Positions 5,012-38,345 of a stretch of 40,172 bases of DNA are shown one piece after another. The notes under the pieces are model-generated. The model was given only the letters and a program-made list of their open reading frames with translations, made no database searches and was not told the origin of the DNA. The first letter of the stretch is position 1. The number at the start of each line of letters is the position of its first letter. The stretch is from Microgenomates group bacterium GW2011_GWC1_46_15 (GTDB taxonomy: Bacteria > Patescibacteriota > Microgenomatia > UBA1400 > UBA12028): positions 380,895 through 421,066 of the forward strand of contig LCLX01000001.1 of assembly GCA_001002285.1 (NCBI GenBank), in the 5' to 3' direction. The position numbers were made by a program, and so were the translations under genes.

Positions 5012-6183
5012 ACATTGTCCACCTCATTGAGTATTTTTCGCCGGCGTTGGGATATCAGGAAACGTATCTTGCGAAAGAACAACAACGGTTGGGGCACCAT
5101 GTCACGGTAGTGACATCAGACAGGTACTTTCCTTTTCCGGATTATGATGCAACCGTTAAAAAAGTCTTAGGGAATCGGATTGTTGGAACAGGATCTTTTA
5201 CAGAGGAGGGTATTCATGTTATCCGCAAGCCGATTTTATTTGAGTTTTTCTCACGCGCGTGGATTGTTGATCTTCTTCCAGCACTTCGCGCGTTAAAACC
5301 GGACGTTATCCATATTCATAGCACGAGTTCATTGAGTACTGTCCGCGTAGCGCGTGCAAAACACACACTAAAAAACACCATTGTGTTAGTGGATGACCAT
5401 TCGCACCTTTCTGTTGTGGCAAACCACTGGAGTAAAGCATGTTTTTATTGGGTGTTTCGGATGTTATTTGGGAAATATCTTTCATACCGCATTAATACCT
5501 TTGTTGCGATTACAAAAGAAACGGCGGATATTGTGCGCACATACATGGGGATTTCCGCGCCTATTCATATTGTCGAACTGGGGGCGGATACGCGATTATT
5601 CTATCGTTCTCCGCAAAAGCGCTTTAAGATACGCAAGAAATATGGATGGAAAGATCAAGACGTTGTGTTTATCTACACGGGGAAAATCATTTCAGATAAA
5701 GGATGCGATACACTGGTTGATGCATGTTGTGCGCTTCCAGGACACACCGCAAAACTTCTTTTTGTAGGGAGCGGGCCCGAAATGTTTATTGCAGATTTAA
5801 AAAAGCGACTGAAGCAAGCAAAAAAAGAAAACGATGTTGTGTGGGTCCCGATGGTAAAGCCAATAGAGCTACCGGCGTATTATTCGGCAGCTGATGTTGG
5901 TGTTTGGCCAAAACAGGAGTCTATTTCTATGATTGAGGCGGCTGCGTGTTCACTTCCTGTTATCGTCAAGTCATCTCCGAGCATGCAGAAACGGGTGCGG
6001 AATGAAAATGGAGTGATGTATAAAGAGGGAAATGTGCAGGAACTTACCCGCGCAATGCAAAGCATGATGAAAAACAAGGCGGTACGGATTACTATGGGAA
6101 AACGCGGAAAACAGTTGGTAGATCAGGCGTATAGTTGGACATCAATTGCCAAACAGTTTCTCTTGCTATATACGAAAACATAA
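5008..6183 (+). CDS. glycosyltransferase family 4
   Basis: MNIVHLIEYFSPALGYQETYLAKEQQRLGHHVTVVTSD; FIYTGKIISDKGCDTLVDAC; GVWPKQESISMIEAAACSLPVI. Confidence 0.92.
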   Translation: MNIVHLIEYFSPALGYQETYLAKEQQRLGHHVTVVTSDRYFPFPDYDATVKKVLGNRIVGTGSFTEEGIHVIRKPILFEFFSRAWIVDLLPALRALKPDVIHIHSTSSLSTVRVARAKHTLKNTIVLVDDHSHLSVVANHWSKACFYWVFRMLFGKYLSYRINTFVAITKETADIVRTYMGISAPIHIVELGADTRLFYRSPQKRFKIRKKYGWKDQDVVFIYTGKIISDKGCDTLVDACCALPGHTAKLLFVGSGPEMFIADLKKRLKQAKKENDVVWVPMVKPIELPAYYSAADVGVWPKQESISMIEAAACSLPVIVKSSPSMQKRVRNENGVMYKEGNVQELTRAMQSMMKNKAVRITMGKRGKQLVDQAYSWTSIAKQFLLLYTKT

Positions 6184-6192
6184 GGAGTATCT

Positions 6193-6888
6193 ATGAATCT
6201 TCGTCAAATCTATCTTCGATATGTCGATGCACGGTATGGGGAGTACAAAAGCGCCTACGATACATATTTAAAAAACAAGAAACGCGTTTTAGACGTTGGA
6301 TGCGGCATTGGAAATTTTATCGCGTTTGATCCAAAACACATTGAAGGAGTTGATCAGAATGAAACTTCGCTGAAGATTGCAAAAAAACGTGGATATACAG
6401 TGACAAAGGGACAGGTTTATACACTTCCATATAAAAATGATTCTTTTGACGGAATATTTTGCGGACATGTGATTGAACATCTCTATCCGCATGAGGCATT
6501 AAAAATGCTCTCTGAGTTTCATCGTGTTCTCAAACGCGGTGGCGTACTTGTCATGAAAACGCCGCTCATGTATGCGCGGTTTTATAACGATCTTACGCAT
6601 ATCCGTCCGTACCCGCCGGAAGCGATTATGGACTATCTCATGCGTACGCCACAGACGTCCACCCAAAGAACGGCGGATGATTCACGCATGGAGTTCGAAA
6701 TTGTTGATTTGCGGTACCGGTACGATTATCTATACTATCCGCAACTTGAACCATCGCGCTACACAAATATATTTATACGATATCTCATCACAGTGTTCAA
6801 AATCTTTTCTTTGGCGTTGTATCAGCTTGGAATCAGAAATTATTTCGTCAAAAATGGCTACACGATTGTCCTGCAGAAGAAAGCATAA
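6193..6888 (+). CDS. SAM-dependent methyltransferase
   Basis: RVLDVGCGIGNFIAFDP, GHVIEHLYPHEALKMLSEFHRVLKRGGVLVMKTP; SD AAGGAG upstream. Confidence 0.9.
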   Translation: MNLRQIYLRYVDARYGEYKSAYDTYLKNKKRVLDVGCGIGNFIAFDPKHIEGVDQNETSLKIAKKRGYTVTKGQVYTLPYKNDSFDGIFCGHVIEHLYPHEALKMLSEFHRVLKRGGVLVMKTPLMYARFYNDLTHIRPYPPEAIMDYLMRTPQTSTQRTADDSRMEFEIVDLRYRYDYLYYPQLEPSRYTNIFIRYLITVFKIFSLALYQLGIRNYFVKNGYTIVLQKKA

Positions 6889-6890
6889 TC

Positions 6891-8018
6891 ATGGATTTGA
6901 AGAATCTTTTTTTCCGCACAGTGGGTGATGCCGTTGGACGTTCCTATGGGATAGTAGACAATGAGCGATATATCCACGAGGGGCTTCGATGGCTCATGCA
7001 TGCCCAGGATATAGCCGGTGATGGCGGAGTGTCGGCACAGTACTCTCTTTTTCATGGGTGGGATGGATCATATATTGAAACAACGGGATATATTTTGGAA
7101 ACATTTTTTACTGTTGCACAGAAATACCGCAACGCTGAGTATAAAAAACGAGCGGTTCGTATGGCAGATTTTCTTGTCCATGTTCAGCTATCAAGTGGTG
7201 CATTCCAAAGTGGAACACCACAAGACCTTCCAGCTGTTCCCAGAGTGTTTAATACGGGAGAGGATATCCGGGGACTTGTTACGGCGTATGAGAAAACAGG
7301 GAGGAAACAGTACCTTAAGGCGGCACGCAAAGCCGCAGATTGGTTGATTGCCATACAGGAAAAGGATGGGAGTTGGATACAGCATGAGTTTCAACACCGC
7401 AAACACGCGTATCATGCTCGCACGGCGTGGGCGTTGCTTCGAGTATGGCAAGCCACAAAAGAAAAAACCTATCGCCAGGCAGCGGAAAAAAATCTCCGTT
7501 GGGTTCTCAGCAAACAGCAAAAAAACGGATGGTTCTCTGAATGCGATTTCACCACCCCAAAATGGCCGTTTACACATGCGATTGACTACACAATGAGCGG
7601 TTTTTTTGCCTCTTCGCGTATCTTGAAGAACGCGACCTATTGGAAGGCAGGAAAAACGTGTGCGGATGCATTATTACGGTACTATGGTCGCCATGTATTT
7701 ATGCCGGCGACGTTTGATCCAGACTGGAAAAGTGTTAACACATACACATGTTTAACGGGAGATGCACAAATTGCATACACGTGGCTTATGGTATTTCAAG
7801 AGACACACGATCAGAAATACTTGAAATACGCGGTCAAACTTCTCGATGACATAAAAAAAACCGTTGATGTTAGTACAGAAGATTTAAATATCCGCGGTGC
7901 AGTTGCCGGCGCTTTCCCACATTATGGCGGATACAGCAGATGGAACTATCCAAATTGGGCAACGAAGTTTTTTGTTGACGCATGTGTGTTATTAGAAGAA
8001 TGTCAGAAGGAACAATGA
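6891..8018 (+). CDS. alpha/alpha-barrel (six-hairpin/terpene-cyclase-like) carbohydrate-active protein of unknown function
   Basis: Repeating helical units each ending in a Q-x-x-(D/N)G-type turn: WLMHAQDIAGDGGVSA, FLVHVQLSSGAFQSG, AADWLIAIQEKDGSW, NLRWVLSKQQKNGWF. Confidence 0.65.
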   Translation: MDLKNLFFRTVGDAVGRSYGIVDNERYIHEGLRWLMHAQDIAGDGGVSAQYSLFHGWDGSYIETTGYILETFFTVAQKYRNAEYKKRAVRMADFLVHVQLSSGAFQSGTPQDLPAVPRVFNTGEDIRGLVTAYEKTGRKQYLKAARKAADWLIAIQEKDGSWIQHEFQHRKHAYHARTAWALLRVWQATKEKTYRQAAEKNLRWVLSKQQKNGWFSECDFTTPKWPFTHAIDYTMSGFFASSRILKNATYWKAGKTCADALLRYYGRHVFMPATFDPDWKSVNTYTCLTGDAQIAYTWLMVFQETHDQKYLKYAVKLLDDIKKTVDVSTEDLNIRGAVAGAFPHYGGYSRWNYPNWATKFFVDACVLLEECQKEQ

Positions 8019-8719
8019 TTCATCCAACATACACGACAATACTGAATGTTATCAATCGCCGTTTTCCCCAAAAGAAAACGCTGCGGATTCTTGACTACGG
8101 ATGCGGAAGCGGATATTTTCTTGAGGTTTTTGGAAAAACACGCATTGGCGAATACTATGGATATGATCTCAGTGAGAAAAGTATTCAATGTGCAAAAAAA
8201 ACACACCATAATCGTAATGTACATTTTTTTCATATACAAAAAGATAACGCATCTCTTCTCAAAGAAAAGAAAAACATTGATGTTCTTGTCCTCATCGGTG
8301 TTTTACAGTACATGAGTAATAAAGAATTTACTGCCTTGCTTCAAAATGCAAAAAAACTGTTGGCTCCAAATGGGGTGATAATCATAAGCTGTAGTGTAGA
8401 TCATATTGTGTATAGAGCGATGAACGTATTGCAAATATTCTCACCGCACCAGCTGATTCATCGAAAACGCGCTGTAGACATGCTCAAACAGGTTGGATTT
8501 AGGGTTGTACATCAATATGAGCGGGGAATTATCTTGAGTCCCATATTTTCTCAACTCATGATAGTGTTTGATATTTTGGACAAACTCATTTTTTCAACGA
8601 AAGGAACGATTGGCCCGATTGGAAAGACTATGCGAGGCATCACAAACATTCTTTTGTCTCTGGAGTATCGGTTGCCGGTGGATTATGGATATACGTTGTT
8701 TATTGTGGCGGAAAAATGA
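8015..8719 (+). CDS. SAM-dependent methyltransferase
   Basis: RILDYGCGSGYFLEVFGKTRIGEYYGYDLSE, VLIGVLQYMSNKEFTALLQNAKKLLAPNGVIIIS; start at 8015 (ATGA overlap) preferred over 7982. Confidence 0.88.
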   Translation: MIHPTYTTILNVINRRFPQKKTLRILDYGCGSGYFLEVFGKTRIGEYYGYDLSEKSIQCAKKTHHNRNVHFFHIQKDNASLLKEKKNIDVLVLIGVLQYMSNKEFTALLQNAKKLLAPNGVIIISCSVDHIVYRAMNVLQIFSPHQLIHRKRAVDMLKQVGFRVVHQYERGIILSPIFSQLMIVFDILDKLIFSTKGTIGPIGKTMRGITNILLSLEYRLPVDYGYTLFIVAEK

Positions 8720-25774: not shown

Positions 25775-26503
25775 TCATAATGTATGGTACTCGGAGAGAA
25801 CGGATCGGGGATCCCCATCTTTTATAAGTTTTCCATTTTGTAAAAGGAGTGCTCTCTCACAGAAATCTAAAACGGATTCTTCATTATGGCTTACATAAAT
25901 GATCGTTTTTTTCCGATCTTTTTTTATCGCATGAAGACGGTCAAGACATTTTTTTTGAAATTTAAAATCCCCAACCGCCAGTATTTCATCTATAAGCAGA
26001 ATGTTTGCGTTTGTATGGATCGCGATAGAAAATCCTAATCTCATATACATTCCCGATGAATACTTCTTGACCGGCACATGGATGAACTCTCCGAGTTCGC
26101 TAAACTCTATGATTTGGTCAAGTTCTTTTTCAACTTCTTTTTTATGCATTCCAAGAATTGCTGCATTTAAAAAAATGTTTTCATATCCCGAAAGCTCTGG
26201 ATGGAAGCCCGCTCCAAGTTCAATGAGGGGTGCCACTCTTCCTCGTACAGCGACAGTTCCTTTGGTGGGATATGTTACCCCGGCAATAAGTTTGAGGATT
26301 GTTGATTTTCCTGCGCCATTTTTTCCAATAATGCCAACCGTTTCCCCTTCGCGAATTTCAAAAGAAAGATCGTGGAAAACGGTATATTTTTTTGTTAACG
26401 ATTTTCCTCTTAGAAGGTTTGGAATAACTTCTTTAAATGTCCGGTCTTCCTGTAGGTAAAAATCTTTATGAACATGCTGGAAGGTGATGGCGGGATTTGG
26501 CAT
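25775..26503 (-). CDS. wzt: polysaccharide ABC exporter ATPase (Wzt/TagH-like, no C-terminal carbohydrate-binding domain)
   Basis: Walker A GIIGKNGAGKSTILK, signature KYSSGMYMRLGFSIAIH, Walker B ILLIDEILAVGD, H-loop SHN. Start set at 26503 (SD AAGGA upstream) not 26614. Confidence 0.94.
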   Translation of the reverse strand: MPNPAITFQHVHKDFYLQEDRTFKEVIPNLLRGKSLTKKYTVFHDLSFEIREGETVGIIGKNGAGKSTILKLIAGVTYPTKGTVAVRGRVAPLIELGAGFHPELSGYENIFLNAAILGMHKKEVEKELDQIIEFSELGEFIHVPVKKYSSGMYMRLGFSIAIHTNANILLIDEILAVGDFKFQKKCLDRLHAIKKDRKKTIIYVSHNEESVLDFCERALLLQNGKLIKDGDPRSVLSEYHTL

Positions 26504-26511
26504 AGTGTTCC

Positions 26512-27300
26512 TTAAGCAACATCGGCAAATGTGCGCTCCGCTTTTTTGAATATAAAAAATCCGACAAAGAAAATAACGATGGCGATACCAAGAGACCATA
26601 CAATGATTGTCCACTCAAATGGATCATGAAAAAGGGCTGAACGGTATCCCTCCATAAACCCAACCATGGGATTGAGTTTATAAAGCCATACATATTGAGA
26701 TGGTACTAAGGAAAGCGGGTACACAATAGGCGTCATGTACATCCACAGCATAAGAAGAAGGTTGGCAAGGTATTGAATATCTCTATAAAACAAGTTAGAC
26801 GTGGAGAATATGAAAGAAATACCAACGGTAAAAAGAAGTTGACCTGCTAGTAATGGAACAACCCACAAAGACGTTGTTGAAAAAGGTACGTGAAGAATCA
26901 TCATAAACAATGAAAAAATGATGGCGGAAATAAAAAAGTCAACAAATTTTGCTAACACAATGGCATAAATAATAATTTCTCTGGGAAAAGCGACTTTACG
27001 GAGGAGAGATGAGTTATCAACAAGTCCTTGTGTTGCGGTAAATATGGATCCCTGAAATAAGCCCCAAGGGAGAAGCGCCGCATAGAGGAAAATAATATAG
27101 GGGATATTATTTGTTGAAAATCGGAAAATCACCGAAAATACGAATGAATACACCAACAGCTGTGATAAGGGATTGAGAATAACCCACGCGTATCCAATGA
27201 ATGACTGTTTATATCTCGCCTTGATTTCCCGCTGTGTAAGCTGCAGAAGAAGATATTTGTAATGCGTGAAGGGGAAAACAAGTGTTTTTAGAAAAGTCAT
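26512..27300 (-). CDS. wzm: polysaccharide ABC exporter permease (ABC-2 type, Wzm/TagG-like)
   Basis: LTQREIKARYKQSFIGYAWVILNPLSQLLVYSFVFSVIFRF...; start 27300 or 27327 (27300 preferred because of -10-like element 6 nt upstream). Confidence 0.93.
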   Translation of the reverse strand: MTFLKTLVFPFTHYKYLLLQLTQREIKARYKQSFIGYAWVILNPLSQLLVYSFVFSVIFRFSTNNIPYIIFLYAALLPWGLFQGSIFTATQGLVDNSSLLRKVAFPREIIIYAIVLAKFVDFFISAIIFSLFMMILHVPFSTTSLWVVPLLAGQLLFTVGISFIFSTSNLFYRDIQYLANLLLMLWMYMTPIVYPLSLVPSQYVWLYKLNPMVGFMEGYRSALFHDPFEWTIIVWSLGIAIVIFFVGFFIFKKAERTFADVA

Positions 27301-27306
27301 AGTTTT

Positions 27307-27312
27307 AGTATA
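27307..27312 (-). promoter_or_regulatory. -10-like TATACT, 6 nt upstream of the ATG at 27300
   Basis: Reverse complement of agtata; followed by AAAACT then ATG (wzm). Confidence 0.35.
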
Positions 27313-27331
27313 TAACGGGAACGACATATAT

Positions 27332-29362
27332 TTATTTTTTCTTGTACAAATAACGCGTTTTTTTAAAGAAGAAGATCATCGAGGCGATGTTTATCAGGAA
27401 AAGTACAGAAAGAAATGTTTGAGGTTTATCCCAGTAGTACACATTTTTCAGCCACCAAAAATCAAATGTTTCTTCATAAATTCTTGCCCGCAAGTTCCAG
27501 AGCTGCCATGGGTCTGTTACAGTCTTTCCCCAGTATTGATACGGAATGGAAGTGGTCTTTTCTCCTAATAAGGTTGAAACATCGGGATAATCTAACGATT
27601 GGAGATTGACAGAGTTATTATTTATTGTCATCTTTTTTACATAAAGCGTGTTTTGAGCGGAGGATGTTCCAACGTATGTGACGCGTACATCTAATAAATT
27701 CATACCATTTTGAATGATTCCAGCAGGGGGTGTTATAGAAAAAGAGCCGTCTTTAGAAACAGGAATGACAGAAACATCAGAAAGAATATGTGTATTAAGA
27801 GAACCAGAAATTTGTGCGGAGTACATGCTGGTTGGTTCGTCGGGATTGTTATACAGAAGGAAAGAGATTGATTGAATAGGATTCTCTGCTTTTTGTGTGA
27901 AAGAAAGATGTCCTACACTTTTTATCCCCCGGAACACTCCAATGCCCGTCCGAAGCGGTGTTTCAAAACCATCATAAAACCGGACACCATATAGACCGTG
28001 ATCTATTGTTTTTGGGAAATCATGGATTTTTACAAGAAAGTCCCTCGTCATTGTAATGATAGGCGAGTATCTGGGAATGAAGCTCGCATACTCGTATCGG
28101 GTAATTTCGGTTGTATCAATAAAAAAATGATATGGGAGACCCCGGTATTGGACTTGATATGGTACTGCAACGCCAAGTAATTGAATCAACGCTCCCAAAA
28201 CGAATACAGGCGTAACAATAAATTTTTTCTGCAGAGAAGAAAGTCTTGTGATGATGTGAAAAATAATAAGCATAAGCGGAGGAATAAGCATTGCCATGTA
28301 GCGGGGTCCCCAAACCGCTCCTCCATACCAAATTGGACGAAGCTCCTGCGCTCCGGGAATAGAAATAGTCGCGGAACCATAAGAAAAAACATAAATAGCA
28401 AAGAGGAAAAGAAAACTTAACACTTCCGGAAGCAGACGCTTCTGAATCCGGTGCCAAAAAATAATAAGAAGAACAAGCGGAGGAGAATACAGAAAAATAC
28501 TTTTCCCAGGACTAAAAAGAAGTCCGTATGCCCCTTCAAAAAGAATTTTTGGTTGAATCTGGGAAACAGCGCTTATAATGGACTTAATTTTCCAAAAAAG
28601 AAGAAACGAAAAACATAATAAAATGCCAAGAAGCACGCGTTTTACAGAATGATATTTCGGGTAAAGAAGAAGAACGATGTACAGAAGTAGTGCTGGAATA
28701 GGAAGAATATATGATTCGTTATACGAAAAAATAACAACAAGATATGAAATCAAACTAAAGAGAAGATACCGAAGGTGTTCTGTTTGCGCGTATCTTTTTA
28801 CACAGTAAAACGTACACATTGTGAACGTAATAAATGGCATATGTGCAAATCCAAACTTTGAGAGAGGAAAAATGTTTGTCGCAAACACGGTAGCAAGACT
28901 CAAGAGTAAAGACATCTTATGTGAAAGTTTTAACGTAAGGCCATACTTGAGCATAATAATGCCAAGAAGCGCGGCGAAAAAAGAGTTTGTAAAACTCGCA
29001 AAAAGAAGTACGGACCAGTCTGATTCTAGGGGAAAACGTGTAGGGGGTGGTGCCCCATAATATGTATGAACAAGATCAGAAATTGCCACTGCGGGAACCA
29101 TCACTATAGAATACCCCAACCCTCCAGGCGCGCGCCATGTTCCATCGGGTTGTTTGACGGAGTTCATGTGAACATTTTTTCCCTCGTTAAACTCGTATGG
29201 AGCTGATGTTGCCTGATGGTTGTAGTACAAATTTCTTGCAACGGTCAGATATAAAAGTCCGTCTTCCGACTCAATGAGACCGGAGGAAAAGAAGCTTAAG
29301 ACAGAAAAGAGGAAGAAAAAATAAAAAAAGAAAAACTTCCAACTGAGCTTTGTATCTTTCAT
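27332..29362 (-). CDS. GT-C-like membrane glycosyltransferase with C-terminal extracytoplasmic beta-rich domain between TMs
   Basis: 676 aa; SSGLIESEDGLLYLTVARNLYY first-loop acidic motif; TM-rich first ~400 aa; then GIKSVGHLSFTQKAENPIQSISFLLYNN...NGMNLLDVRVTYVG beta-rich stretch; terminal TM LSVLFLINIASMIFFF and KKTRYLYKKK. Confidence 0.72.
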   Translation of the reverse strand: MKDTKLSWKFFFFYFFFLFSVLSFFSSGLIESEDGLLYLTVARNLYYNHQATSAPYEFNEGKNVHMNSVKQPDGTWRAPGGLGYSIVMVPAVAISDLVHTYYGAPPPTRFPLESDWSVLLFASFTNSFFAALLGIIMLKYGLTLKLSHKMSLLLSLATVFATNIFPLSKFGFAHMPFITFTMCTFYCVKRYAQTEHLRYLLFSLISYLVVIFSYNESYILPIPALLLYIVLLLYPKYHSVKRVLLGILLCFSFLLFWKIKSIISAVSQIQPKILFEGAYGLLFSPGKSIFLYSPPLVLLIIFWHRIQKRLLPEVLSFLFLFAIYVFSYGSATISIPGAQELRPIWYGGAVWGPRYMAMLIPPLMLIIFHIITRLSSLQKKFIVTPVFVLGALIQLLGVAVPYQVQYRGLPYHFFIDTTEITRYEYASFIPRYSPIITMTRDFLVKIHDFPKTIDHGLYGVRFYDGFETPLRTGIGVFRGIKSVGHLSFTQKAENPIQSISFLLYNNPDEPTSMYSAQISGSLNTHILSDVSVIPVSKDGSFSITPPAGIIQNGMNLLDVRVTYVGTSSAQNTLYVKKMTINNNSVNLQSLDYPDVSTLLGEKTTSIPYQYWGKTVTDPWQLWNLRARIYEETFDFWWLKNVYYWDKPQTFLSVLFLINIASMIFFFKKTRYLYKKK

Positions 29363-29365
29363 ACC

Positions 29366-30820
29366 ATGTATTATGATACCTCATACGGGAAAATATACCG
29401 AACGTATATGAGCAACAACATTTTAGCCTCCATTGTTATCGTGAATTATAACGGGAAACATTTTCTTGAACAGTGCTTCTCTTCACTTTTTTCCATGGAC
29501 ACGCCAAAGCATTCGTACGAGATTATACTCGTTGATAATCATTCATGGGATGATTCTGTTGTTTTCACGAAAACACATTTCCCCCAAGTTCGCATTGTTG
29601 AAAATAAAGAAAATCTTGGTTTTTCCGCAGGAAATAACGTGGGAGCAAAAATTGCCCGTGGAAAATATATTGCCTTTTTAAACAACGACACCAAAGTTGA
29701 TAGATTGTGGTTATCTTCATTGATACATAGAATCGAGAAAAATTCTACTATTGCTGCGGTAAGTTCTAAGGCGCTTTTGTATTATCCTTTTTTTAGGCTT
29801 CACGTCCAGTCAGATACATATGCAAAATCAGATTTTATGCGATTTTCCGGCAGAAAACGGGTTGGAGTTTCTCTCGAAAATGTTACCCCCGCTGACATAA
29901 AACTTAAACCATATATCCAATATGGGTGTGGTTTCTATGATGTGGATGATAAGGAGGCCATAGAAAAATGGACTGATGGAGATGCGGAACTTTTAATTCC
30001 ATTCGACCCACTGGCACACGAGGTGCGGTATACAGTGACTCTTAGTACTGACCAACCCTTTTCAGGAATAAATACAGAACTATCTCTTACCATTGAAGAT
30101 AACGTGCTCATTCACGACACGCTTGCTCCACATGAAACAAAACAATACACACTCGTTTTACACGCTGATCAAATAAAAAAGTATGCAAAGTATGCTGTGC
30201 AGAACGCAGGAAATATTGTTTTTAAAGATGGGTATAGTCGGGATAGGGGGGCGGCTGTACGAAAAACGACACAAATATTTGAGTTGGATTGTCCTTTCTA
30301 CGATAAACCAGTTGAAGTTTTAGCGTTTTGTGGAGTCGGAGTGCTTGTACGTGAGGACATTTTTACAAAACTTGGCGGATTTGATGAACTATACTTTATG
30401 TACTACGAAGACATTGATTTAAGTCTAACGATGCGTCGTTATGGATACTCCATTTGGTACGAACCAAAAGCAGTTATGTATCATATTCATGCAGGATCGA
30501 GTAAAGAAGGGTCGCGCTTTTTTGCATCACATGTTGAAAAAGGGCGCCTCATTCTTATCGCAAAACATTTTCCATTGTTTATTGTTTGTATGCAGTTTGG
30601 ATTATATGTACTATCATTTTTATTTGCATGCGTATCCATGATGAAGTGGGGATTGAGAGGGAATTGGCGCCTTTACGAAACGTTGAACGAAAAAGTTGAG
30701 TCGCGTGGCGATATTATGAAGTGGGTTGTGGGTCATATATTTTTCCTAGTAAAGAAACGGTTTGTACTAAAACTTCGACAAAAAAAATCTATGAGTGAAA
30801 TATTTCAGTCATTGTATTAA
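29366..30820 (+). CDS. glycosyltransferase family 2 with internal beta-rich inserted domain
   Basis: ASIVIVNYNGKHFLEQCFSSLF, AFLNNDTKVD, FCGVGVLVREDIFTKLGGFDELYFMYYEDIDLSLTMRRYGY. Real start may be 29408 (MSNNILASIV). Confidence 0.92.
   Translation: MYYDTSYGKIYRTYMSNNILASIVIVNYNGKHFLEQCFSSLFSMDTPKHSYEIILVDNHSWDDSVVFTKTHFPQVRIVENKENLGFSAGNNVGAKIARGKYIAFLNNDTKVDRLWLSSLIHRIEKNSTIAAVSSKALLYYPFFRLHVQSDTYAKSDFMRFSGRKRVGVSLENVTPADIKLKPYIQYGCGFYDVDDKEAIEKWTDGDAELLIPFDPLAHEVRYTVTLSTDQPFSGINTELSLTIEDNVLIHDTLAPHETKQYTLVLHADQIKKYAKYAVQNAGNIVFKDGYSRDRGAAVRKTTQIFELDCPFYDKPVEVLAFCGVGVLVREDIFTKLGGFDELYFMYYEDIDLSLTMRRYGYSIWYEPKAVMYHIHAGSSKEGSRFFASHVEKGRLILIAKHFPLFIVCMQFGLYVLSFLFACVSMMKWGLRGNWRLYETLNEKVESRGDIMKWVVGHIFFLVKKRFVLKLRQKKSMSEIFQSLY
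29921..30199 (+). other. candidate inserted domain inside GT2 (protein-level)
   Basis: YGCGFYDVDDKEAIEKWTDGDAELLIPFDPLAHEVRYTVTLSTDQPFSGINTELSLTIEDNVLIHDTLAPHETKQYTLVLHA lies between NDP-binding half and the catalytic DRGA/ED half of the GT2 fold. Confidence 0.6.
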
Positions 30821-30845
30821 TCATAAAAAAATGAGGAAGTAAAAC

Positions 30846-32402
30846 ATGACTACGAGAAAACATAAACAAATAGCTGCAGTATATGACCGATGGCTTCACA
30901 CGTTAGGCGGTGGCGAACAGGTAGGATTTGCATATGCGGAAACACTTCGCTACCTGGGATATAAAACCGAAATTCTTACACACAAAAAGTTTGATGTAGC
31001 TGAAGCAGAACGGAAAATGCACGTAAACCTTTCCGATATACATGTCCGTTACTTACCAAACCTTCCCGATTACCAGTTAAGTCAATATACGGAGGGGTAT
31101 GACGTATTCGTTTCTAATTCATACCTTGATTACATTCCAAATAGAAGCAAATATGGCATTCTTTCTATTTTTTTCCCATCAAGAATTAAAGTCTCAATAT
31201 ATGAGTATTTAAAACGCGCGCACATTATCCCGTCGCTTCGCAGATTTTTCGTATACCCGTCATTTTTTGAAGGTTTCCGTTATGACGAGTTTATAGAAGG
31301 AAAACTGTACAAATGGTTGGGAAGAGAATCGACAGTATACTTCAATCAGAATTTTTCAACTCTGCAAATAGAGTTGAGAGCAGAATTTCTAGCATTTTCG
31401 TGTCTTGATGACATTCAATTTCGATTGGGAAAACAACATATTGTTCCCGACTCACGCGCAGTAAATCATTCGAAAAATACGATAAAGTATATATTTCAAT
31501 TTAAAAGACCAATAAAAGATATTGGCCTCACCATCATTCTCCCCGATTCCGCATATGCAAAATATATTGCCTTAACGAGTATGAGAATTGTGGACTTCCG
31601 ATACGTTCTCTATAACATGTTTAAAGTATTATTTCCGGTATGGGAAATGCGGCTTCATGGGGGTCCGTCGGCAACAAAGTTTTCTGATATTGATTCATAT
31701 GATCGTGTTGTTGCCATTTCAAAATTTTCGCAAGACTGGATTCGAAGATATTGGGGTGTGAATTCTGATTTACTCTATCCTCCGGTAGACGTGAAAACGT
31801 TCGTTCCAGCGAAGAAAAAAAAGAACATAATTGTGCATGTGGGACGTTTTTTTGTCGGGGGACATTCAAAAAAACAACTTGATATGACGAGGGTATTTAA
31901 ACGGTTAATTGATCAAGGATTAAAAGGTTGGGAACTCCATTTTGTTGGCGGGATAGCTGAGGGAGGGATACATCGGAAGTATGTAGAAACGATTTATGAA
32001 GAAACACAGGAATATCCAATTTTTTTGCATACAAATGCACCATTTGATGAAGTAAGGATGCTTTTGTCTGAGGCAAAGATTTATTGGCACGCGACAGGCT
32101 TAGACGAAGATAATACCAGATATCCTGTTCGCCTTGAACATTTCGGCATCACAACAGTAGAAGCGATGGCTTCTGGATGTGTTCCCGTGGTAATCCATGC
32201 TGGTGGCCAGCCAGAAATTATTACTCCCGCGTGTGGGTATACATGGAAAACGAGAGAAGAATTAATGAAACGCACGCTTGAGTTGATACGCAATTCAAAA
32301 CTTCTTAAAGAAAAAAGTTTTGCCGCGGTAGAAAGAAGTAAAGATTTTAGCAGAGAGCGGTTTAAAAGAGAGCTTATTGAGTTATTGAAAGATGCAAAAT
32401 GA
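30846..32402 (+). CDS. glycosyltransferase family 4 with internal beta-rich insertion
   Basis: VYDRWLHTLGGGEQVGFAYAETLRYLGYKTEILTHKKFD; IVHVGRFFVGGHSKKQLDMTRVFKRLID; HFGITTVEAMASGCVPVVIHAGGQPEII; SD GAGGA upstream of ATG. Confidence 0.93.
   Translation: MTTRKHKQIAAVYDRWLHTLGGGEQVGFAYAETLRYLGYKTEILTHKKFDVAEAERKMHVNLSDIHVRYLPNLPDYQLSQYTEGYDVFVSNSYLDYIPNRSKYGILSIFFPSRIKVSIYEYLKRAHIIPSLRRFFVYPSFFEGFRYDEFIEGKLYKWLGRESTVYFNQNFSTLQIELRAEFLAFSCLDDIQFRLGKQHIVPDSRAVNHSKNTIKYIFQFKRPIKDIGLTIILPDSAYAKYIALTSMRIVDFRYVLYNMFKVLFPVWEMRLHGGPSATKFSDIDSYDRVVAISKFSQDWIRRYWGVNSDLLYPPVDVKTFVPAKKKKNIIVHVGRFFVGGHSKKQLDMTRVFKRLIDQGLKGWELHFVGGIAEGGIHRKYVETIYEETQEYPIFLHTNAPFDEVRMLLSEAKIYWHATGLDEDNTRYPVRLEHFGITTVEAMASGCVPVVIHAGGQPEIITPACGYTWKTREELMKRTLELIRNSKLLKEKSFAAVERSKDFSRERFKRELIELLKDAK
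31272..31680 (+). other. candidate inserted domain inside GT4 (protein-level)
   Basis: GFRYDEFIEGKLYKWLGRESTVYFNQNFSTLQIELRAEFLAFSCLDDIQFRLGKQHI... between the N-terminal lobe and DRVVAISKFSQDWIRRYWG. Confidence 0.55.
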
Positions 32403-34051
32403 TAAACTTGCTCCATAAGTTGCGACAACCATTTTTTGCACACATACTTTTTGTCTCTCTCCTTTTTGTTCTCCTCGCCCGCAATCCATTTTCTTCCCGC
32501 ACGCTTATCCCCAACATGGAGCCGTTCCCCGATACATTCCATTACATTGTCCCAGCACAGTCACTTTTGCGAGGGGAGGGATTTTTCATTTCAAGGGAAG
32601 GAAGAACGATTGTTCCTGCTGTTCCACCGCTATACTCACTTTCATTGGTTCCTGCTTTTTTAGTGAAAAATGACGCACGCATGTTTTATGTTACAAACGT
32701 TATACTTGCGCTCACTGCGTACGCGCTCTTTGTAAACATTCTCCGAAAAACGACAGATAAACCTGCCATTGAAATACTTCTTTCCTTTATGTATGTCACC
32801 AACTTTTACATCTCTTGGTACCCACAATGGGCGATGGCGGAAAACTTGATGCTTCCAGTTGTTCTTTATAGCATACTCCTCTTGCTTCAGCCCGCAACAA
32901 AAAAACACGCGCTCATCGCCGGCGTTATTCCGATCGCACTCTACGGCATTAAGTTTGCAAATGCTCCACTTGTTGTAGTGTTTCTTGCGCTGTATGCCAT
33001 CAAATTTTTCAAGAAATTCTTCATATTATTTATCGCGAGCGTAATATGTTTCACCACGCTCTATATTTTGGGCGATTACGCTATAAGCGGAAGAAACTTG
33101 ATTTTAACAGGGTGGTCTCTTGTATTAAGTCTGGTGAAACAACTTCCCATGTTTGTCTCATCGGGACAACGTGGCAGTACAGCGACCCAAGCATCACTAT
33201 CACCATGGTTTTCCCTCTCTTACCTTCCCGAAAACTTTGCAATGCAGTGGCGCGGCCTCCACGGATATGGGGCAAAGTTTCTGTGGGAACAAACGCCGAT
33301 TCTCTCACACGCTGTTGCCGTTTTTGGATGGGTTGGTTTTGGATGGAGCTTGTTGTACGCACAAAGGCGGTGGTTTTCGCTTGCGCTGGTATTGGTTATT
33401 CTCGCGGAAACACTATTTATGTCCACGTTTTACTCAACCGACATGCGGTATCTCATGTTTGCCATCCCCTTCCTCTTGATCGGCTTTGGATGGGCGGTAG
33501 AGTATTCGGCAAAAACCTTAGGAAAACTGTTTCATGGTTTTTCCAGCATGTGGCTCCTCAACTGTTTGGTGATAGGCATTACAATGGTATATCTTTTTTC
33601 AAACGCCCTCCAGCTTAAGTCCCAAATCATGGTCAATCTCAAGTATGCGGAAACTCCGTGGTGGTACCTTGCGGTGGTGGACATGAACACATATTTTTCT
33701 AAAGTTGAAACCAAGGACGGCAAAAAGCCAATCGTGATTAGTGCAATGCCGCCGTATTTTATTGATTTTTATTCAAATAAGACATATACGCTTTTGCCAC
33801 TTTCTGCCCAGCAGGAGTTCCGCTCGTATCTTGTCGAGGCTTGGGGGCCGAATGATTATTCAGACATGATGAAACTTTACGCGACATACCTTAAAAACGG
33901 CTATGACATATATCTTGAAGAGTACGGATTGGGGAATGAAGGATACCTGCACGAAGCATTTCAAAACGTGTTAAAAAACTTTACTGTAATAAAGGTGCAA
34001 AGCGGGTGCTACAACGTGTGCAACATATACAGCGTGATCACAAAAAATTGA
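32399..34051 (+). CDS. GT-C-like membrane glycosyltransferase (GT39/PMT-like)
   Basis: 550 aa, MEPFPDTFHYIVPAQSLLRGEGFFISREGR first-loop acidic motif, PPLYSLSLVPAF, many TMs, C-terminal soluble part. Confidence 0.7.
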   Translation: MINLLHKLRQPFFAHILFVSLLFVLLARNPFSSRTLIPNMEPFPDTFHYIVPAQSLLRGEGFFISREGRTIVPAVPPLYSLSLVPAFLVKNDARMFYVTNVILALTAYALFVNILRKTTDKPAIEILLSFMYVTNFYISWYPQWAMAENLMLPVVLYSILLLLQPATKKHALIAGVIPIALYGIKFANAPLVVVFLALYAIKFFKKFFILFIASVICFTTLYILGDYAISGRNLILTGWSLVLSLVKQLPMFVSSGQRGSTATQASLSPWFSLSYLPENFAMQWRGLHGYGAKFLWEQTPILSHAVAVFGWVGFGWSLLYAQRRWFSLALVLVILAETLFMSTFYSTDMRYLMFAIPFLLIGFGWAVEYSAKTLGKLFHGFSSMWLLNCLVIGITMVYLFSNALQLKSQIMVNLKYAETPWWYLAVVDMNTYFSKVETKDGKKPIVISAMPPYFIDFYSNKTYTLLPLSAQQEFRSYLVEAWGPNDYSDMMKLYATYLKNGYDIYLEEYGLGNEGYLHEAFQNVLKNFTVIKVQSGCYNVCNIYSVITKN

Positions 34052-34124: not shown

Positions 34125-37100
34125 GTGAAACTACCTCGTTTGGGTTTGGTCCGAAAATTTTTCAAGAAACTCACCGTACTGAGTACAATTGTTGGGCTCC
34201 TTTTTCAATCATTTATTCCCACAGTGTTATTGGCATATCCAGCTCCGGTTGCTGCTATTGAAATGGCCGTTTCTCCTTCTGTTTCTTTACAGTATGACAG
34301 TGGAGCACATACGTTTGCACTTGATGTGTTTGGTGTCTCTAAAACGTCATATACATTGACGTATCAACACGATGGCGGAGTTACAGAGGCGGTTGAGGGG
34401 ACTATTGATGCCTCGAGTGATGTTGCCCATGCTTCACTGTATGCAGGGACATGTTCAACGGGCGGAGTATGTGTTCCACACGATGTACAAAGCGGAACGA
34501 TCCATGTTGATGCACTCTATGGCGATACGCAGTCGTATATGTACGATGAAAACTTCTCGTTCAACAATGGTGTGTTCTGGAATGAACATGACAGAGTGTA
34601 CACCACACCAAAAGTTGAACTTAATAAAACATATGTTGCTCCACAAAACGGCGCGGTTACTGTTACATTTACTTCTTTGCCAACGAACCCCGGAACGCTT
34701 TCCATTCAAGAACTTACGTTAACCGAGGAACAAAAACTTCAGCTTGGTGCGATAAGCGACAAAGCCTACGACATTACTTCAACCATGGCAGATGGAACGT
34801 TTACCTACACACTCACCCTGCCGGTGCCGGATCTTGGAGAAAACAGCGATACGCTCAGCGTAGCGTCCTCCGAAGACGGTCAACGTTTTGAGAACGTTGC
34901 GGAAACCCAGCAAACTTTTCATGAGGAGAAGCAGGAGATTGAGGTTCGCAGTCTTGATCACTTTACAGTTTTTGTGATCCGCGACCCATCGGCTTCTGGA
35001 GTTGACGGAGCGGGAGGGTCCTGGGTGAATCCCGGCAATGTCTACGTCTCCGACAACGCGCGGGCCACTGTTCTGCTGAATCTTGGAGCAACCTCGGAAA
35101 ATCTTCTTGCGACGGGGTTTGGGTTGTCTGTCCCAGGAACGGCGGTCATTGAAGGCGTGGAGGTGATGATTGAAAAAAGTGTGAATACATCGAGGACAAA
35201 CGCGAGCAAAGATTCGCTTGTAAACCTTATTGTTGGTGGAGTAGTTGTTGGAAACAACAACGCGGGAGCGAGTTATTTTAACAACACGACCGATGCGGTA
35301 ACAACATACGGATCGTCAAGTGATCTGTGGGGATTAACGCTCACACCAGCGCAAGTAAACTCGGGTGACTTCGGGGTTGCATATGCAGCGCAGCGCCATC
35401 CGTCGGGAAGCAGTGATCAGCGGGTGCGCGTTGATCACATGCAAGTAAAGGTGTACTACAACACACCGCCAACAATAACAATAACATCACCGGATGGCGG
35501 CCAAATCTACCAAGGCGGGTCAGCGCAAGATATTACATGGAACGCAAATGACGTGGATGCAGGGGCATTGTTAAGTGTGGCATTAGAATATACAACGGAT
35601 GGAAGTACATACACACCCATTGTTTCCGGATTGGCGAACGTGGGAAGCTATACATGGACTCTTCCGGGGGAAACTTCACAGACAGTGCGTGTTCGTGCAA
35701 CGGTAAGTGACACAGAAGCTACGGCAAGCGATGATTCAGATGCCGATTTCATTATTGATACTACTGCGCCAACGATGACATACGATGGCCAATCGCCAAT
35801 ATCGAATGCGTATGGGTGGAATAATACTTCGGTTACATTAAGCTGGACATGTTCAGACGCAACGTCAGGCGTCATAAATGGAACAGTAACGGAAACGCTT
35901 TCGGGAGAAGGGGAAGATCAATCGGCAACGGGTGTGTGTACAGACAATGCGGGGAACTCGTCTTCGGATACACAAAACGGCATTGATATTGATTTGACTG
36001 CACCCACAGGCTTGGGGACTCCTACTTCGGACGCCGCCACAAATCCGACAAACATTAACATCATTACGTGGACGTGGGCAGTCCCAGATTCTTCAATCTC
36101 AACTCTTCAAAAATACCTCTGGAATCTCTCGAAAACATTGTTCGGTATCGTCCAGTCTGGTGATACAACGTCCGACAGTGTTACAACAACGATTGTTGAG
36201 GGAGATGGGGAGTACGCGTTCGACGTCCAGGCTGTAGATAAAGCAGACAACACAACTGCCGTACTTACCTCTGATAGTGTCACACTTGACCAAACAGGTC
36301 CGGTCCTTCAATCGTTTTCTTCTCCAGAATCGGATGATATATATGGGCCGGGTTCGAGTATCGCCCTGGAGGCAAGTTATGATGAAACACTTGCCCCTGG
36401 AAGCACGATAACAATGGAGTTAGACAATGGTGTTTCCGTAACACTGGACTCGGTATCTGGAAACACACTGTCTGGTACGTATATTGTTGGCACAACGGGA
36501 AGCGGAGAAGATAGCGCGGATCTCACCGTTTCATCAATCTCTTCGGAGTCGGTGATGGATGCCTTGGGGAACACGCGCACCGACAGCGACTTGCCTGCCA
36601 GTAATATTGAAGACACAAGTGATCTTGAAATTGACACAACTGCGCCAACGAATCCCACACTGGACTCAACCAGTCATAGTATTTCTACATGGTCGAATGA
36701 CTCAACGGTTGATGTAGAATGGGACGGAGCAGGTGACTCGAGTGGTATCAATGGATACTCGTTTGAGTGGGACACGAACGCTTCCACGAATCCTGATACA
36801 ACACTTGAGCCTGCTGGAACGACAACAACGAGTCCGAGTCTCACTGACGGCGATTCGCATTATTTCCACCTGCACACAGAAGATGCTGTTGGAAACTGGT
36901 CAGATAACGCTGATCTTGGTCCGTTCTACATTGATCTCACCAAGCCTACGAGCACAATTTCTGATCCTGCAAACACTGGAACCGGATCTACGACCTACAT
37001 AAACAGCTGGGCCGGCGCATTGGGCGGCTCTTCTGCAGACACGCTCGCGAGTGTGAACTCGGACGTCAATCATGTTGATCTTTCAATCAGGCGCTCTTCA

Positions 37101-38345
37101 GATGGGTTGTACTGGGATGGTGTAGCTTGGGTTGCTGGCACCGAAACTACAACACGCGTAACAACAGCGGGCGCGCCGGACTGGACATACACATTGACCA
37201 GCCTAGTGGAGGATACCTACACAGTGACCTCGCACGCGGTTGATAACGCAACGAATGTTGAAGATTCGTATGTGCTCACGATTGTGTATGACCTTACATT
37301 ACCCACAGTTTCTTCGAGTATTTCACCCGCGACTCCAGATGGAGCAAATGATTGGTATCTGACTGAGCCAACAATTACTATTACTGGCGCGGATGACATT
37401 CTCTTAAATCATCTAGAGTATCAGTGGAACGGCACAAGTGGAGCATGGACAACGTATTCGGTACCGTTTACAACATTTGGCGAAGGCGGATACACCGTGT
37501 ACTTCCGTGCATTTGACGAAGCAGGAAATGTAAGTCTCGTTGGATCACGGTTGGTAAAGTATGACAAAACCGAGTTGGACAATGGACCGTTGAATGTAAG
37601 CATTAGTCCAAATCCAACCGGCGGTTCCACGGCAACCGTAAAATGGGATGCGGCAAAAGACAACGTTGGCATTTCCAAGTATGAAGTTCAGTGGACGTTG
37701 AATGGCAGTTCGACAGGATACACAGATACGGTAGGATCGAATATCCGCGAGCATGTGATTACCAACTTAACAGAAGGCACATGGACCGTCCGCGTGCGCG
37801 CGTTTGATGACGCCGGACACAATAAAGACGCGACGATCAATGAAGTTGTTGACCGCACCGCCCCCGTAGCCCCAACCCTGAGTTTGACAGGAACGGGTAC
37901 GGGAACAGCAAGCCTCGCATGGAATACAGTTGCGGACGCAACGGACTACATTATCTGGTACGGCGTGACCACGGGAACGTATATTTATGGCGCACGTGTT
38001 GGTAACGTGTCATCGTATACAGTCCAAGGTCTTGGCGCGGGAAGCTACTTCTTTATCGTCCGCGCGGTTGATGCTTCAAATAACCAGAGTGCAAACTCAA
38101 ACGAAGTTTCAACGGGAGCGATTGCAGGGGCGCCTGGAGTTCAGCCTGGAGCGCCAGCGCAGGGATTTGCGCCTGAGGTGCTTGGTAAGACAACAACAGA
38201 AGAGGCAACACCATCACCCTCGCCGACTCAGCTAGGCTCAATTGAAGGTGCACAGACAAACGATTGGGAATGGCTCTGGTGGCTGACACTCACGCTTCCG
38301 GTTGGCGGGGCTCTCTACTTCCTTCTCCGCAGACGAGTGATATAA
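34125..38345 (+). CDS. large secreted multi-Ig-like/FN3-like surface protein with C-terminal membrane anchor
   Basis: GTG start; signal peptide KFFKKLTVLSTIVGLLFQSFIPTVLLAYPAPVAA; module linkers DTTAPT, DLTAPT, DQTGPV, DTTAPT, DLTKPT, DLTLPT, DRTAPV; C-term WEWLWWLTLTLPVGGALYFLLRRRVI. Confidence 0.92.
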   Translation: MKLPRLGLVRKFFKKLTVLSTIVGLLFQSFIPTVLLAYPAPVAAIEMAVSPSVSLQYDSGAHTFALDVFGVSKTSYTLTYQHDGGVTEAVEGTIDASSDVAHASLYAGTCSTGGVCVPHDVQSGTIHVDALYGDTQSYMYDENFSFNNGVFWNEHDRVYTTPKVELNKTYVAPQNGAVTVTFTSLPTNPGTLSIQELTLTEEQKLQLGAISDKAYDITSTMADGTFTYTLTLPVPDLGENSDTLSVASSEDGQRFENVAETQQTFHEEKQEIEVRSLDHFTVFVIRDPSASGVDGAGGSWVNPGNVYVSDNARATVLLNLGATSENLLATGFGLSVPGTAVIEGVEVMIEKSVNTSRTNASKDSLVNLIVGGVVVGNNNAGASYFNNTTDAVTTYGSSSDLWGLTLTPAQVNSGDFGVAYAAQRHPSGSSDQRVRVDHMQVKVYYNTPPTITITSPDGGQIYQGGSAQDITWNANDVDAGALLSVALEYTTDGSTYTPIVSGLANVGSYTWTLPGETSQTVRVRATVSDTEATASDDSDADFIIDTTAPTMTYDGQSPISNAYGWNNTSVTLSWTCSDATSGVINGTVTETLSGEGEDQSATGVCTDNAGNSSSDTQNGIDIDLTAPTGLGTPTSDAATNPTNINIITWTWAVPDSSISTLQKYLWNLSKTLFGIVQSGDTTSDSVTTTIVEGDGEYAFDVQAVDKADNTTAVLTSDSVTLDQTGPVLQSFSSPESDDIYGPGSSIALEASYDETLAPGSTITMELDNGVSVTLDSVSGNTLSGTYIVGTTGSGEDSADLTVSSISSESVMDALGNTRTDSDLPASNIEDTSDLEIDTTAPTNPTLDSTSHSISTWSNDSTVDVEWDGAGDSSGINGYSFEWDTNASTNPDTTLEPAGTTTTSPSLTDGDSHYFHLHTEDAVGNWSDNADLGPFYIDLTKPTSTISDPANTGTGSTTYINSWAGALGGSSADTLASVNSDVNHVDLSIRRSSDGLYWDGVAWVAGTETTTRVTTAGAPDWTYTLTSLVEDTYTVTSHAVDNATNVEDSYVLTIVYDLTLPTVSSSISPATPDGANDWYLTEPTITITGADDILLNHLEYQWNGTSGAWTTYSVPFTTFGEGGYTVYFRAFDEAGNVSLVGSRLVKYDKTELDNGPLNVSISPNPTGGSTATVKWDAAKDNVGISKYEVQWTLNGSSTGYTDTVGSNIREHVITNLTEGTWTVRVRAFDDAGHNKDATINEVVDRTAPVAPTLSLTGTGTGTASLAWNTVADATDYIIWYGVTTGTYIYGARVGNVSSYTVQGLGAGSYFFIVRAVDASNNQSANSNEVSTGAIAGAPGVQPGAPAQGFAPEVLGKTTTEEATPSPSPTQLGSIEGAQTNDWEWLWWLTLTLPVGGALYFLLRRRVI
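35740..37870 (+). repeat. degenerate tandem Ig-like/FN3-like modules (protein-level repeats)
   Basis: Recurring (I/V)D-x-T-x-P-(T/V) linker about every 230-350 nt within the 1406-aa protein; DNA repeat conserved only locally (ctgcgccaacga at about 35764 and 36642). Confidence 0.75.

What the first reader, a model, noticed from the sequence alone, without database searches (positions are those of the whole stretch)
29921..31680. Two adjacent glycosyltransferases of different folds (GT2 and GT4) carry a similar-looking inserted beta-rich domain
Seen in sequence: the GT2 (29366-30820) is interrupted by GFYDVDDKEAIEKWTDGDAELLIPFDPLAHEVRYTVTL..., and the next gene, a GT4 (30846-32402), is interrupted by GFRYDEFIEGKLYKWLGRESTVYFNQNFSTLQIELRAEFL.... 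Both inserts open with GF-x(11-12)-W-x-x-(G/R)-(D/E)-(A/S)-(E/T)-(L/V) and continue as alternating hydrophobic strands. Inference: one mobile accessory domain (a possible carbohydrate-binding or scaffold sandwich) was inserted into GT-A and GT-B enzymes of the same pathway. The shared motif is short, so convergence is possible.
Basis: partly seen in the sequence, partly recalled or inferred. Interest (0 to 1): 0.72.

Follow-up and report, generated by a model that had tools for sequence, protein, structure and literature searches.

The report
Circularly permuted module shared by glycosyltransferases
Two neighbouring sugar-adding enzymes of unrelated shape really do carry copies of one unnamed, probably sugar-binding, add-on domain, and in one of them the copy is spliced in "rotated", with its end piece placed first; relatives elsewhere carry the same domain on the exporter and the methylating enzyme of the same gene cluster.

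Summary
The motif match is present at the stated places and occurs nowhere else in the window. The inserts are GT2 residues ~140-277 and GT4 ~143-250. Within the window's own lineage the GT2 and GT4 inserts are barely similar (hhalign E 0.67 to 0.002). Chloroflexota relatives settle it. A profile of GT2 inserts alone finds a Thermoflexales GT4 insert as its only hit in 4.4 Mb (E 1.4e-4). GT2 inserts and Chloroflexota-type GT4 inserts match at E 5e-19.

(1) The GT2 copy is circularly permuted: its first ~40 residues match the domain's C-terminal end and the rest its N-terminal part (E 8e-8 and 1e-14). Rotated, it aligns as one piece at E 9e-22. (2) The same domain lies at the C-terminus of Wzt-like export ATPases and methyltransferases, and on membrane glycosyltransferases, often in consecutive genes; a version is probable in the window's own 27332-29362.

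No Pfam or NCBIfam model covers it. The GT4 insert model is a beta sandwich resembling carbohydrate-binding modules. Best reading: a glycan-binding module holding the growing chain (inferred). The rival is an enzyme-docking module.

The parts
29366..30820 (+). GT2 glycosyltransferase (GT-A), 484 aa, interrupted by the module
   Evidence: PF00535 E 4.4e-23 at residues 22-132; catalytic half resumes at ~264-392 (PF13641, PF10111)
29783..30196 (+). Whole insert in the GT2 (residues ~140-277)
   Evidence: absent from four shorter GT2 relatives; AF2 insert-only model pLDDT 80.8, pTM 0.77, all-beta
29789..29884 (+). [quoted passage not shown]
   Evidence: family level: piece alone vs 63 canonical domains E 2.5e-9, score 46.9 vs shuffle maximum 13.5; not significant for this single sequence (10 of 200 shuffles as good)
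29915..30172 (+). Permuted segment 2 (residues 184-269, IQYGCGFYDVDD...KQYTLVLHADQ): corresponds to the N-terminal ~90 positions of the canonical domain
   Evidence: model without any GT2 matches 8-91 at residues 185-270, i-E 0.0019 for this sequence; family E 1e-14
30846..32402 (+). GT4 glycosyltransferase (GT-B), 518 aa, interrupted by the module
   Evidence: PF00534 E 5.1e-14 at residues 321-488; adjacent to the GT2 in CPR and Chloroflexota loci
31272..31595 (+). Insert in the GT4 (residues 143-250), canonical strand order
   Evidence: AF2 insert-only pLDDT 90.2, pTM 0.85, about eight strands; Foldseek PDB best hit beta-sandwich region of GH146, E 1.6e-4, then CBM32/CBM6/CBM35/CBM86; hhalign to canonical domain E 2.2e-4 to 0.03, in register
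27653..28003 (-). Probable third copy: C-terminal part of the 676-aa membrane protein 27332-29362(-), DGFETP...VFRG
   Evidence: three orthologs vs canonical profile: hhalign E 6.8e-5, score 32.1 vs 100 column-shuffle maximum 16.2, in register; tested after seeing it by eye
26512..27327 (-). Wzm-like ABC-2 permease of the same cluster
   Evidence: PF01061 E 1.5e-16
25775..26614 (-). Wzt-like ATPase, without any C-terminal binding domain
   Evidence: PF00005 E 6.9e-22, no Wzt_C match

Best explanation
SHOWN: the GT2 and GT4 inserts belong to one family of ~110-130-residue beta-sandwich domains with no Pfam or NCBIfam entry (motif G-[FW]-[YF]-x-x-E ... [FYV]-R-[WY]-[TS] ... D-x-R-x-[LIV]-G). In the GT4 it is inserted in canonical strand order. 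In the GT2 it is inserted as a circular permutant: the two C-terminal strands come first, a short linker joins them to the original N-terminus, and the chain leaves through the opened loop between strands 6 and 7. In Chloroflexota the same domain also ends the Wzt-like export ATPase and a methyltransferase that flank the GT2-GT4 pair. INFERRED: it is a non-catalytic glycan-binding module of an ABC-exporter (Wzm/Wzt) polysaccharide pathway. It grips the growing lipid-linked chain next to the GT2 and GT4 active sites (and, in Chloroflexota, at the modifying methyltransferase and the exporter), so that enzymes acting on one chain share one recognition element and can elongate it processively or hand it on. 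Insertion as a permutant probably reflects that the loop between strands 6 and 7, rather than the natural ends, suits the GT2 surface.
For: Cross-family homology: GT2-insert-only profile A5 finds the Thermoflexales GT4 insert as its only hit in that genome, E 1.4e-4. GT2-insert plus membrane-GT profile (no GT4 in it) matches Chloroflexota GT4 inserts over positions ~11-123, E 1e-4 to 1.5e-12. GT2 (rotated) vs Chloroflexota-type GT4 inserts E 5.3e-19; GT4 inserts vs copies from neither GT2 nor GT4 E 2.2e-21. Permutation: model of 63 canonical copies without any GT2; 16 distinct GT2 proteins show positions ~93-129 before ~3-93. Profile pieces swapped, E 1e-14 and 8e-8; rotated, one piece, E 9.4e-22. 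Seen within the CPR set alone: rotated 1.1e-13; second piece 0.0018. Company: Wzt-GT2-GT4(-methyltransferase) consecutive genes all carrying the domain; Wzm/Wzt genes beside the pair in the window and in L061, L068, L069, L070. Fold: GT4 insert resembles the beta-sandwich of GH146 and CBM32/6/35/86. Wzt C-terminal CBDs are jelly rolls that bind the chain cap (PMC9445017). Inserts vary together: all 8 loci with a motif-bearing GT2 insert (one only partial) have a motif-bearing GT4 insert; the other 6 have it in 2 (not independent lineages).
Against: No binding data. Foldseek hits are weak in TM (0.41-0.50) and the GT2 model hits nothing at E < 0.001, which a permutation would explain but which is also what an unrelated fold would give. 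CPR GT4 inserts have lost the D-x-R-x-LG motif and match the canonical profile only at E 2e-4 to 0.03; their membership rests largely on the equivalent position in the same GT4 family. In the CPR loci examined the Wzt proteins lack the module, so a hand-over to the exporter cannot work there in the same way. The strongest conserved residues (G, R, D-x-R-x-x-G) could be structural rather than ligand-binding.
Confidence: 0.58

Rival explanations
1. The module is a docking domain: copies on GT2, GT4, Wzt, methyltransferase and membrane GTs bind one another (or a common scaffold) and hold the pathway enzymes in one complex; it does not touch sugar.
For: Consecutive genes share it; GT2 and GT4 inserts appear to be kept or lost together; GT2-GT4 natural fusion of 1010 aa in which only the GT4 part keeps the module (L163).
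Against: Fold neighbours in PDB are largely glycan-associated modules and glycoside-hydrolase beta-sandwich regions; the domain also occurs on single membrane GTs.
Confidence: 0.28
2. The GT2 and GT4 inserts are unrelated and the shared GF...W motif is convergence.
For: Direct comparison of the closest GT2 and GT4 insert sets gives E 0.67 with the wrong register; with more CPR sequences only 0.026-0.21.
Against: Bridging Chloroflexota sequences give E 1e-4 to 5e-19 in the correct register, with models that exclude the family being tested.
Confidence: 0.05
3. Same domain, but no permutation: the first ~40 residues of the GT2 insert are an unrelated strand pair and the GT2 copy is a C-terminally truncated domain.
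For: In the window's own protein the first segment alone is not significant (10 of 200 shuffles score as well).
Against: Family-level piece E 2.5e-9, score 46.9 vs 100-shuffle maximum 13.5; rotated profile gains from 1e-14 to 9e-22; the piece lies before the rest in all 16 GT2s where both pieces were found; the two strands of the AF2 model lie where the permutation needs them.
Confidence: 0.05
4. The insert is only a spacer or membrane-apposed stabiliser, kept for geometry.
For: Lost at least twice and probably more often in the GT2 subfamily without loss of the conserved GT2 motifs.
Against: Conserved G, R, D-x-R-x-x-G motif across very different host proteins.
Confidence: 0.09

Closest known systems
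Wzt C-terminal carbohydrate-binding domain (PF14524 Wzt_C; E. coli O9a, Raoultella terrigena, Aquifex aeolicus)
   Same: beta-sandwich / jelly-roll module fused to the C-terminus of the export ATPase of an ABC-dependent glycan pathway; in Chloroflexota our domain sits in that same kind of protein
   Different: distinct family: in Chloroflexota Wzt both occur side by side (Wzt_C at 266-383, our domain at 447-566); profiles do not match in register (E 0.016); ours is also inserted in GT2 and GT4
CBM-like domain in the K. pneumoniae O7 terminator ORF6 (PMC11231755)
   Same: a predicted binding module on an enzyme (methyltransferase-kinase) that acts on the exported chain
   Different: an immunoglobulin-like fold in an AlphaFold model, function not pursued; the authors state that CBMs were not identified in other terminators
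CBM6/CBM32/CBM35/CBM86 and the GH146 beta-sandwich region
   Same: nearest solved folds of the GT4 insert
   Different: no sequence similarity in the PDB search; TM about 0.41-0.50
DUF7024 (PF22895)
   Same: one of 15 members matches at E 0.029; from memory it is a C-terminal sandwich of membrane glycosyltransferases
   Different: below the curated cut-off; no DUF7024 match in five genomes that were searched, including carriers

Membership tests
Wzt_C carbohydrate-binding domain (PF14524) | match to the PF14524 profile | tested here: not met
   no PF14524 match in 15 isolated domains at E<=0.1; it matches a separate region of the same Wzt protein
Wzt_C carbohydrate-binding domain (PF14524) | fused to the C-terminus of the Wzt ATPase | tested here: met
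   C-terminal in 15 Chloroflexota proteins tallied as Wzt-like by their ATPase motif; not in the window, whose Wzt has no extra domain
Wzt_C carbohydrate-binding domain (PF14524) | binds the modified non-reducing end of the exported glycan | not testable with these tools
   needs glycan binding assays
CBM-type beta-sandwich (CBM6/32/35 group) | jelly-roll fold | tested here: inconclusive
   GT4 insert: Foldseek E 1.6e-4 to GH146, CBM32/6/35 at 0.03-0.1, TM 0.41-0.50; GT2 insert: no hit at E < 0.001
DUF7024 (PF22895) | score above the curated cut-off | tested here: not met
GT2 (Pfam Glycos_transf_2) host | GT2 profile, both halves around the insert | tested here: met
GT4 (Pfam Glycos_transf_1) host | Glycos_transf_1 profile in the C-terminal domain | tested here: met
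circular permutation | two segments homologous to the canonical domain in swapped order, rejoining as one alignment when rotated | tested here: met

The most novel reading that the evidence does not exclude
An undescribed glycan-recognition module is the common currency of an ABC-exporter polysaccharide pathway: elongating GT2 and GT4, membrane GT, methyltransferase and export ATPase each carry a copy that binds the same chain end, so the chain is passed along by one recognition code. In the GT2 the module was circularly permuted so that it could be spliced into the catalytic fold.
Probability: 0.38. Interest if true: 0.78.

Novelty: new variant of a known kind. Interest (0 to 1): 0.62.

Why it matters
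Binding modules on glycan exporters (Wzt) are known, but in a study of K. pneumoniae termination the authors could name none on other terminator enzymes (PMC11231755). Here one unannotated module is shared by two polymerising-type GTs, a methyltransferase, membrane GTs and the exporter, often in consecutive genes, across Chloroflexota and Patescibacteria. That would make 'how do the enzymes of a pathway find the same chain?' testable with one domain. A naturally inserted and circularly permuted domain next to its unpermuted sister in the neighbouring gene is also a clean case for studying how domains become insertable. Ordinary annotation misses it: no Pfam or NCBIfam model covers it, and sequential searches hide the permuted copy.

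Tried and rejected
Direct hhalign of window-lineage GT2 vs GT4 inserts: nearly blank. Using the GF...W motif as the family hallmark: rejected, since several orthologous GT4 inserts lack it. Pfam, NCBIfam and PDB sequence searches for the domain: no family. DUF7024 as the family name: not supported. Equating it with Wzt_C: rejected. A5 hit in an isoleucyl-tRNA-synthetase-like frame (L078, E 7e-4 among 380 genomes): chance. Foldseek of the GT2 insert: no significant hit, as expected for a permutant under a sequential aligner. Native versus rotated whole-sequence HMMER scores do not separate the two, because HMMER sums local pieces; replaced by single-alignment hhalign. Plasmid tblastn with two domain copies: nothing, and one marginal Rhizobium hit. 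One single origin of the insert among the GT2s sampled, with no later loss: rejected by the AU test (p 1e-4); the tree rather suggests an old insert with several losses.

Full report
WHAT IS THERE. The window lies in a 0.91 Mb genome of the candidate phyla radiation; relatives that came up are Patescibacteria MAGs such as Daviesbacteria, Pacebacteria and Woesebacteria. It holds a glycan cluster: a Wzt-like ATPase (25775-26614, minus), a Wzm-like permease (26512-27327, minus), a 676-aa membrane protein (27332-29362, minus), then on the plus strand a GT2 (29366-30820), a GT4 (30846-32402) and another 550-aa membrane protein (32399-34051). The GT2 and GT4 are interrupted by ~137 and ~110 residues. 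Pfam and NCBIfam see the catalytic parts and nothing in the inserts.

THE OBSERVATION. Comparison with relatives defines the inserts. Four related GT2s of 306-342 aa jump from KALLYY directly to VQNAG. All twelve aligned GT4s paired with such GT2s carry the GT4 insert, whereas ordinary GT4 hits in the same genomes do not match that region.

ARE THE TWO INSERTS THE SAME DOMAIN? Within the window's lineage the answer is weak. Profiles of the closest sequences give E 0.67 with no sensible register; larger sets give 0.026-0.002 in register and beat 100 of 100 column shuffles. The answer comes from outside. The one Chloroflexota GT4 found by the search for related loci (Thermoflexales, L074) reads GFYGAEASDGHLIRWTDGHGVLRLP, against GFYKKTKGNYSSRWTDGHGVVLLP in a CPR GT2 insert. 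A profile made only from GT2 inserts finds that GT4 insert as its single hit in a 4.4 Mb genome, E 1.4e-4. The same profile finds N- or C-terminal domains of membrane glycosyltransferases (GT39/PMT-like and GT87) in Chloroflexota, E 2e-4 to 4e-3. Those sequences were not chosen by any GT4, yet they align with the GT4 inserts over nearly the whole domain (E 1.3e-4 with L074 included, 0.008 for CPR GT4 only). A search for the GT4 subfamily then found it in 38 of 301 Chloroflexota genomes. In the 32 regions fetched (most of them Chloroflexota, chosen by these searches), a profile without any GT4 hits many Chloroflexota GT4 inserts over positions ~11-123 with E down to 1.5e-12. Chloroflexota-type GT4 inserts versus copies from neither GT2 nor GT4: E 2.2e-21; versus GT2 inserts: E 5.3e-19. 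Homology is therefore secure at family level. For the CPR GT4 inserts by themselves it is weaker (E 2.2e-4 to 0.03) and is carried also by the equivalent insertion point in the same GT4 family.

CIRCULAR PERMUTATION. The profile hits in GT2s came in two pieces in the wrong order. I rebuilt the model from 63 copies in canonical order with every GT2 excluded and searched the GT2s. In 16 distinct GT2 proteins positions ~93-129 of the domain lie at residues ~125-173 and positions ~3-93 follow at ~160-265; the opposite order was not seen. At profile level (27 GT2 inserts) the two pieces match at E 8e-8 and 1e-14, and after rotation the alignment is a single one from end to end at E 9.4e-22. The first piece alone reaches score 46.9 against a maximum of 13.5 in 100 column shuffles. 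The CPR subset alone shows the same (rotated E 1.1e-13, second piece 0.0018). For the window's protein taken singly the first piece is not significant, so the permutation there is inferred from its family. Secondary structure agrees. The GT2 insert model begins with two strands (7-17 and 34-40 of the model) before the GF...W region, while the GT4 model ends with two strands (100-104, 114-121) after it.

WHO ELSE CARRIES IT. In the Chloroflexota loci, three or four consecutive genes carry the domain: a Wzt-like export ATPase (ATPase, then Wzt_C, then this domain), the GT2 (permuted insert), the GT4 (insert), and sometimes a SAM methyltransferase with the domain at its C-terminus. Tally in the fetched regions: 25 GT4, 25 GT2, 15 Wzt-like, 1 GT2-GT4 fusion and 15 others, which include further Wzt-like proteins, methyltransferases and membrane proteins. 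These regions were chosen by the searches and are not a random sample. In the window, three orthologs of the 676-aa membrane protein next door give E 6.8e-5 against the canonical profile for their C-terminal region, beating all 100 shuffles, so three adjacent genes may carry it. No Pfam or NCBIfam model covers the domain and no solved homologue is found by sequence.

AGE. In a tree of the GT2 catalytic core with the insert columns removed, insert-bearing GT2s fall on both sides of the tree (Chloroflexota and CPR). At least three changes are forced by well-supported branches, and one clade of all insert-bearing rows is rejected (AU p 1e-4). The simplest reading is an old insertion with later losses; gains were not excluded. 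Where the GT2 insert is absent, or has lost its motif, the GT4 insert has usually lost its GF...W motif too (8 of 8 against 2 of 6; the lineages are not independent, and one of the 8 GT2 motifs is partial).

WHAT IT DOES. The GT4 insert model resembles the beta-sandwich region of GH146 and CBM32, 6, 35 and 86 (TM 0.41-0.50). Together with its place on elongating transferases, a methyltransferase and the exporter of an ABC-dependent pathway, this favours a glycan-binding module. The known analogue is the unrelated Wzt_C domain, a jelly roll that recognises the chain cap for export (PMC9445017). In a study of K. pneumoniae termination the authors reported a CBM-like domain on one terminator enzyme and none on others (PMC11231755). 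Binding is inferred, not shown; a docking role between enzymes remains a serious rival. In CPR the Wzt lacks the module, so there it can act only at the transferases.

VERDICT.

Noticed in passing
window 27653-28003 (-), in ORF 27332-29362: C-terminal part of the neighbouring 676-aa membrane protein matches the same domain profile (E 6.8e-5), which would make three adjacent genes with it.
   Followed up: partly
L163:2334-5366 (+); similar 973-1014 aa frames in G599 and G567: Natural GT2-GT4 fusion protein; in L163 the GT2 half lacks the insert and the GT4 half keeps the domain.
   Followed up: partly
L158:3540-5768 and 5774-8041 (-): Two consecutive ~742 and ~755 aa membrane proteins of the same order as the window, both ending in the domain.
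   Followed up: no
L149:6317-7960 (-): A different GT2 carrying the domain in canonical order at residues 343-459, i.e. after the catalytic part and not inserted.
   Followed up: no
G039, G002, G003 (L061-L063): GT2s without the insert are paired with GT4s whose insert lacks the GF...W motif; possible coupled loss.
   Followed up: partly
window 29366: The GT2 start is probably ~14 codons downstream (MSNNILAS...), since most orthologs start there.
   Followed up: no
window 34125-38345 (+): 1406-aa secreted-looking protein with Ig-like and fn3 repeats and a C-terminal transmembrane segment followed by RRRVI, beside the glycan cluster; possibly the glycosylated surface protein.
   Followed up: no
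window 32399-34051 (+) and homologs in L061-L063, L068-L070: 550-aa multipass protein usually in the same cluster, next to the GT4 or near it; no Pfam match; likely a membrane glycosyltransferase.
   Followed up: no
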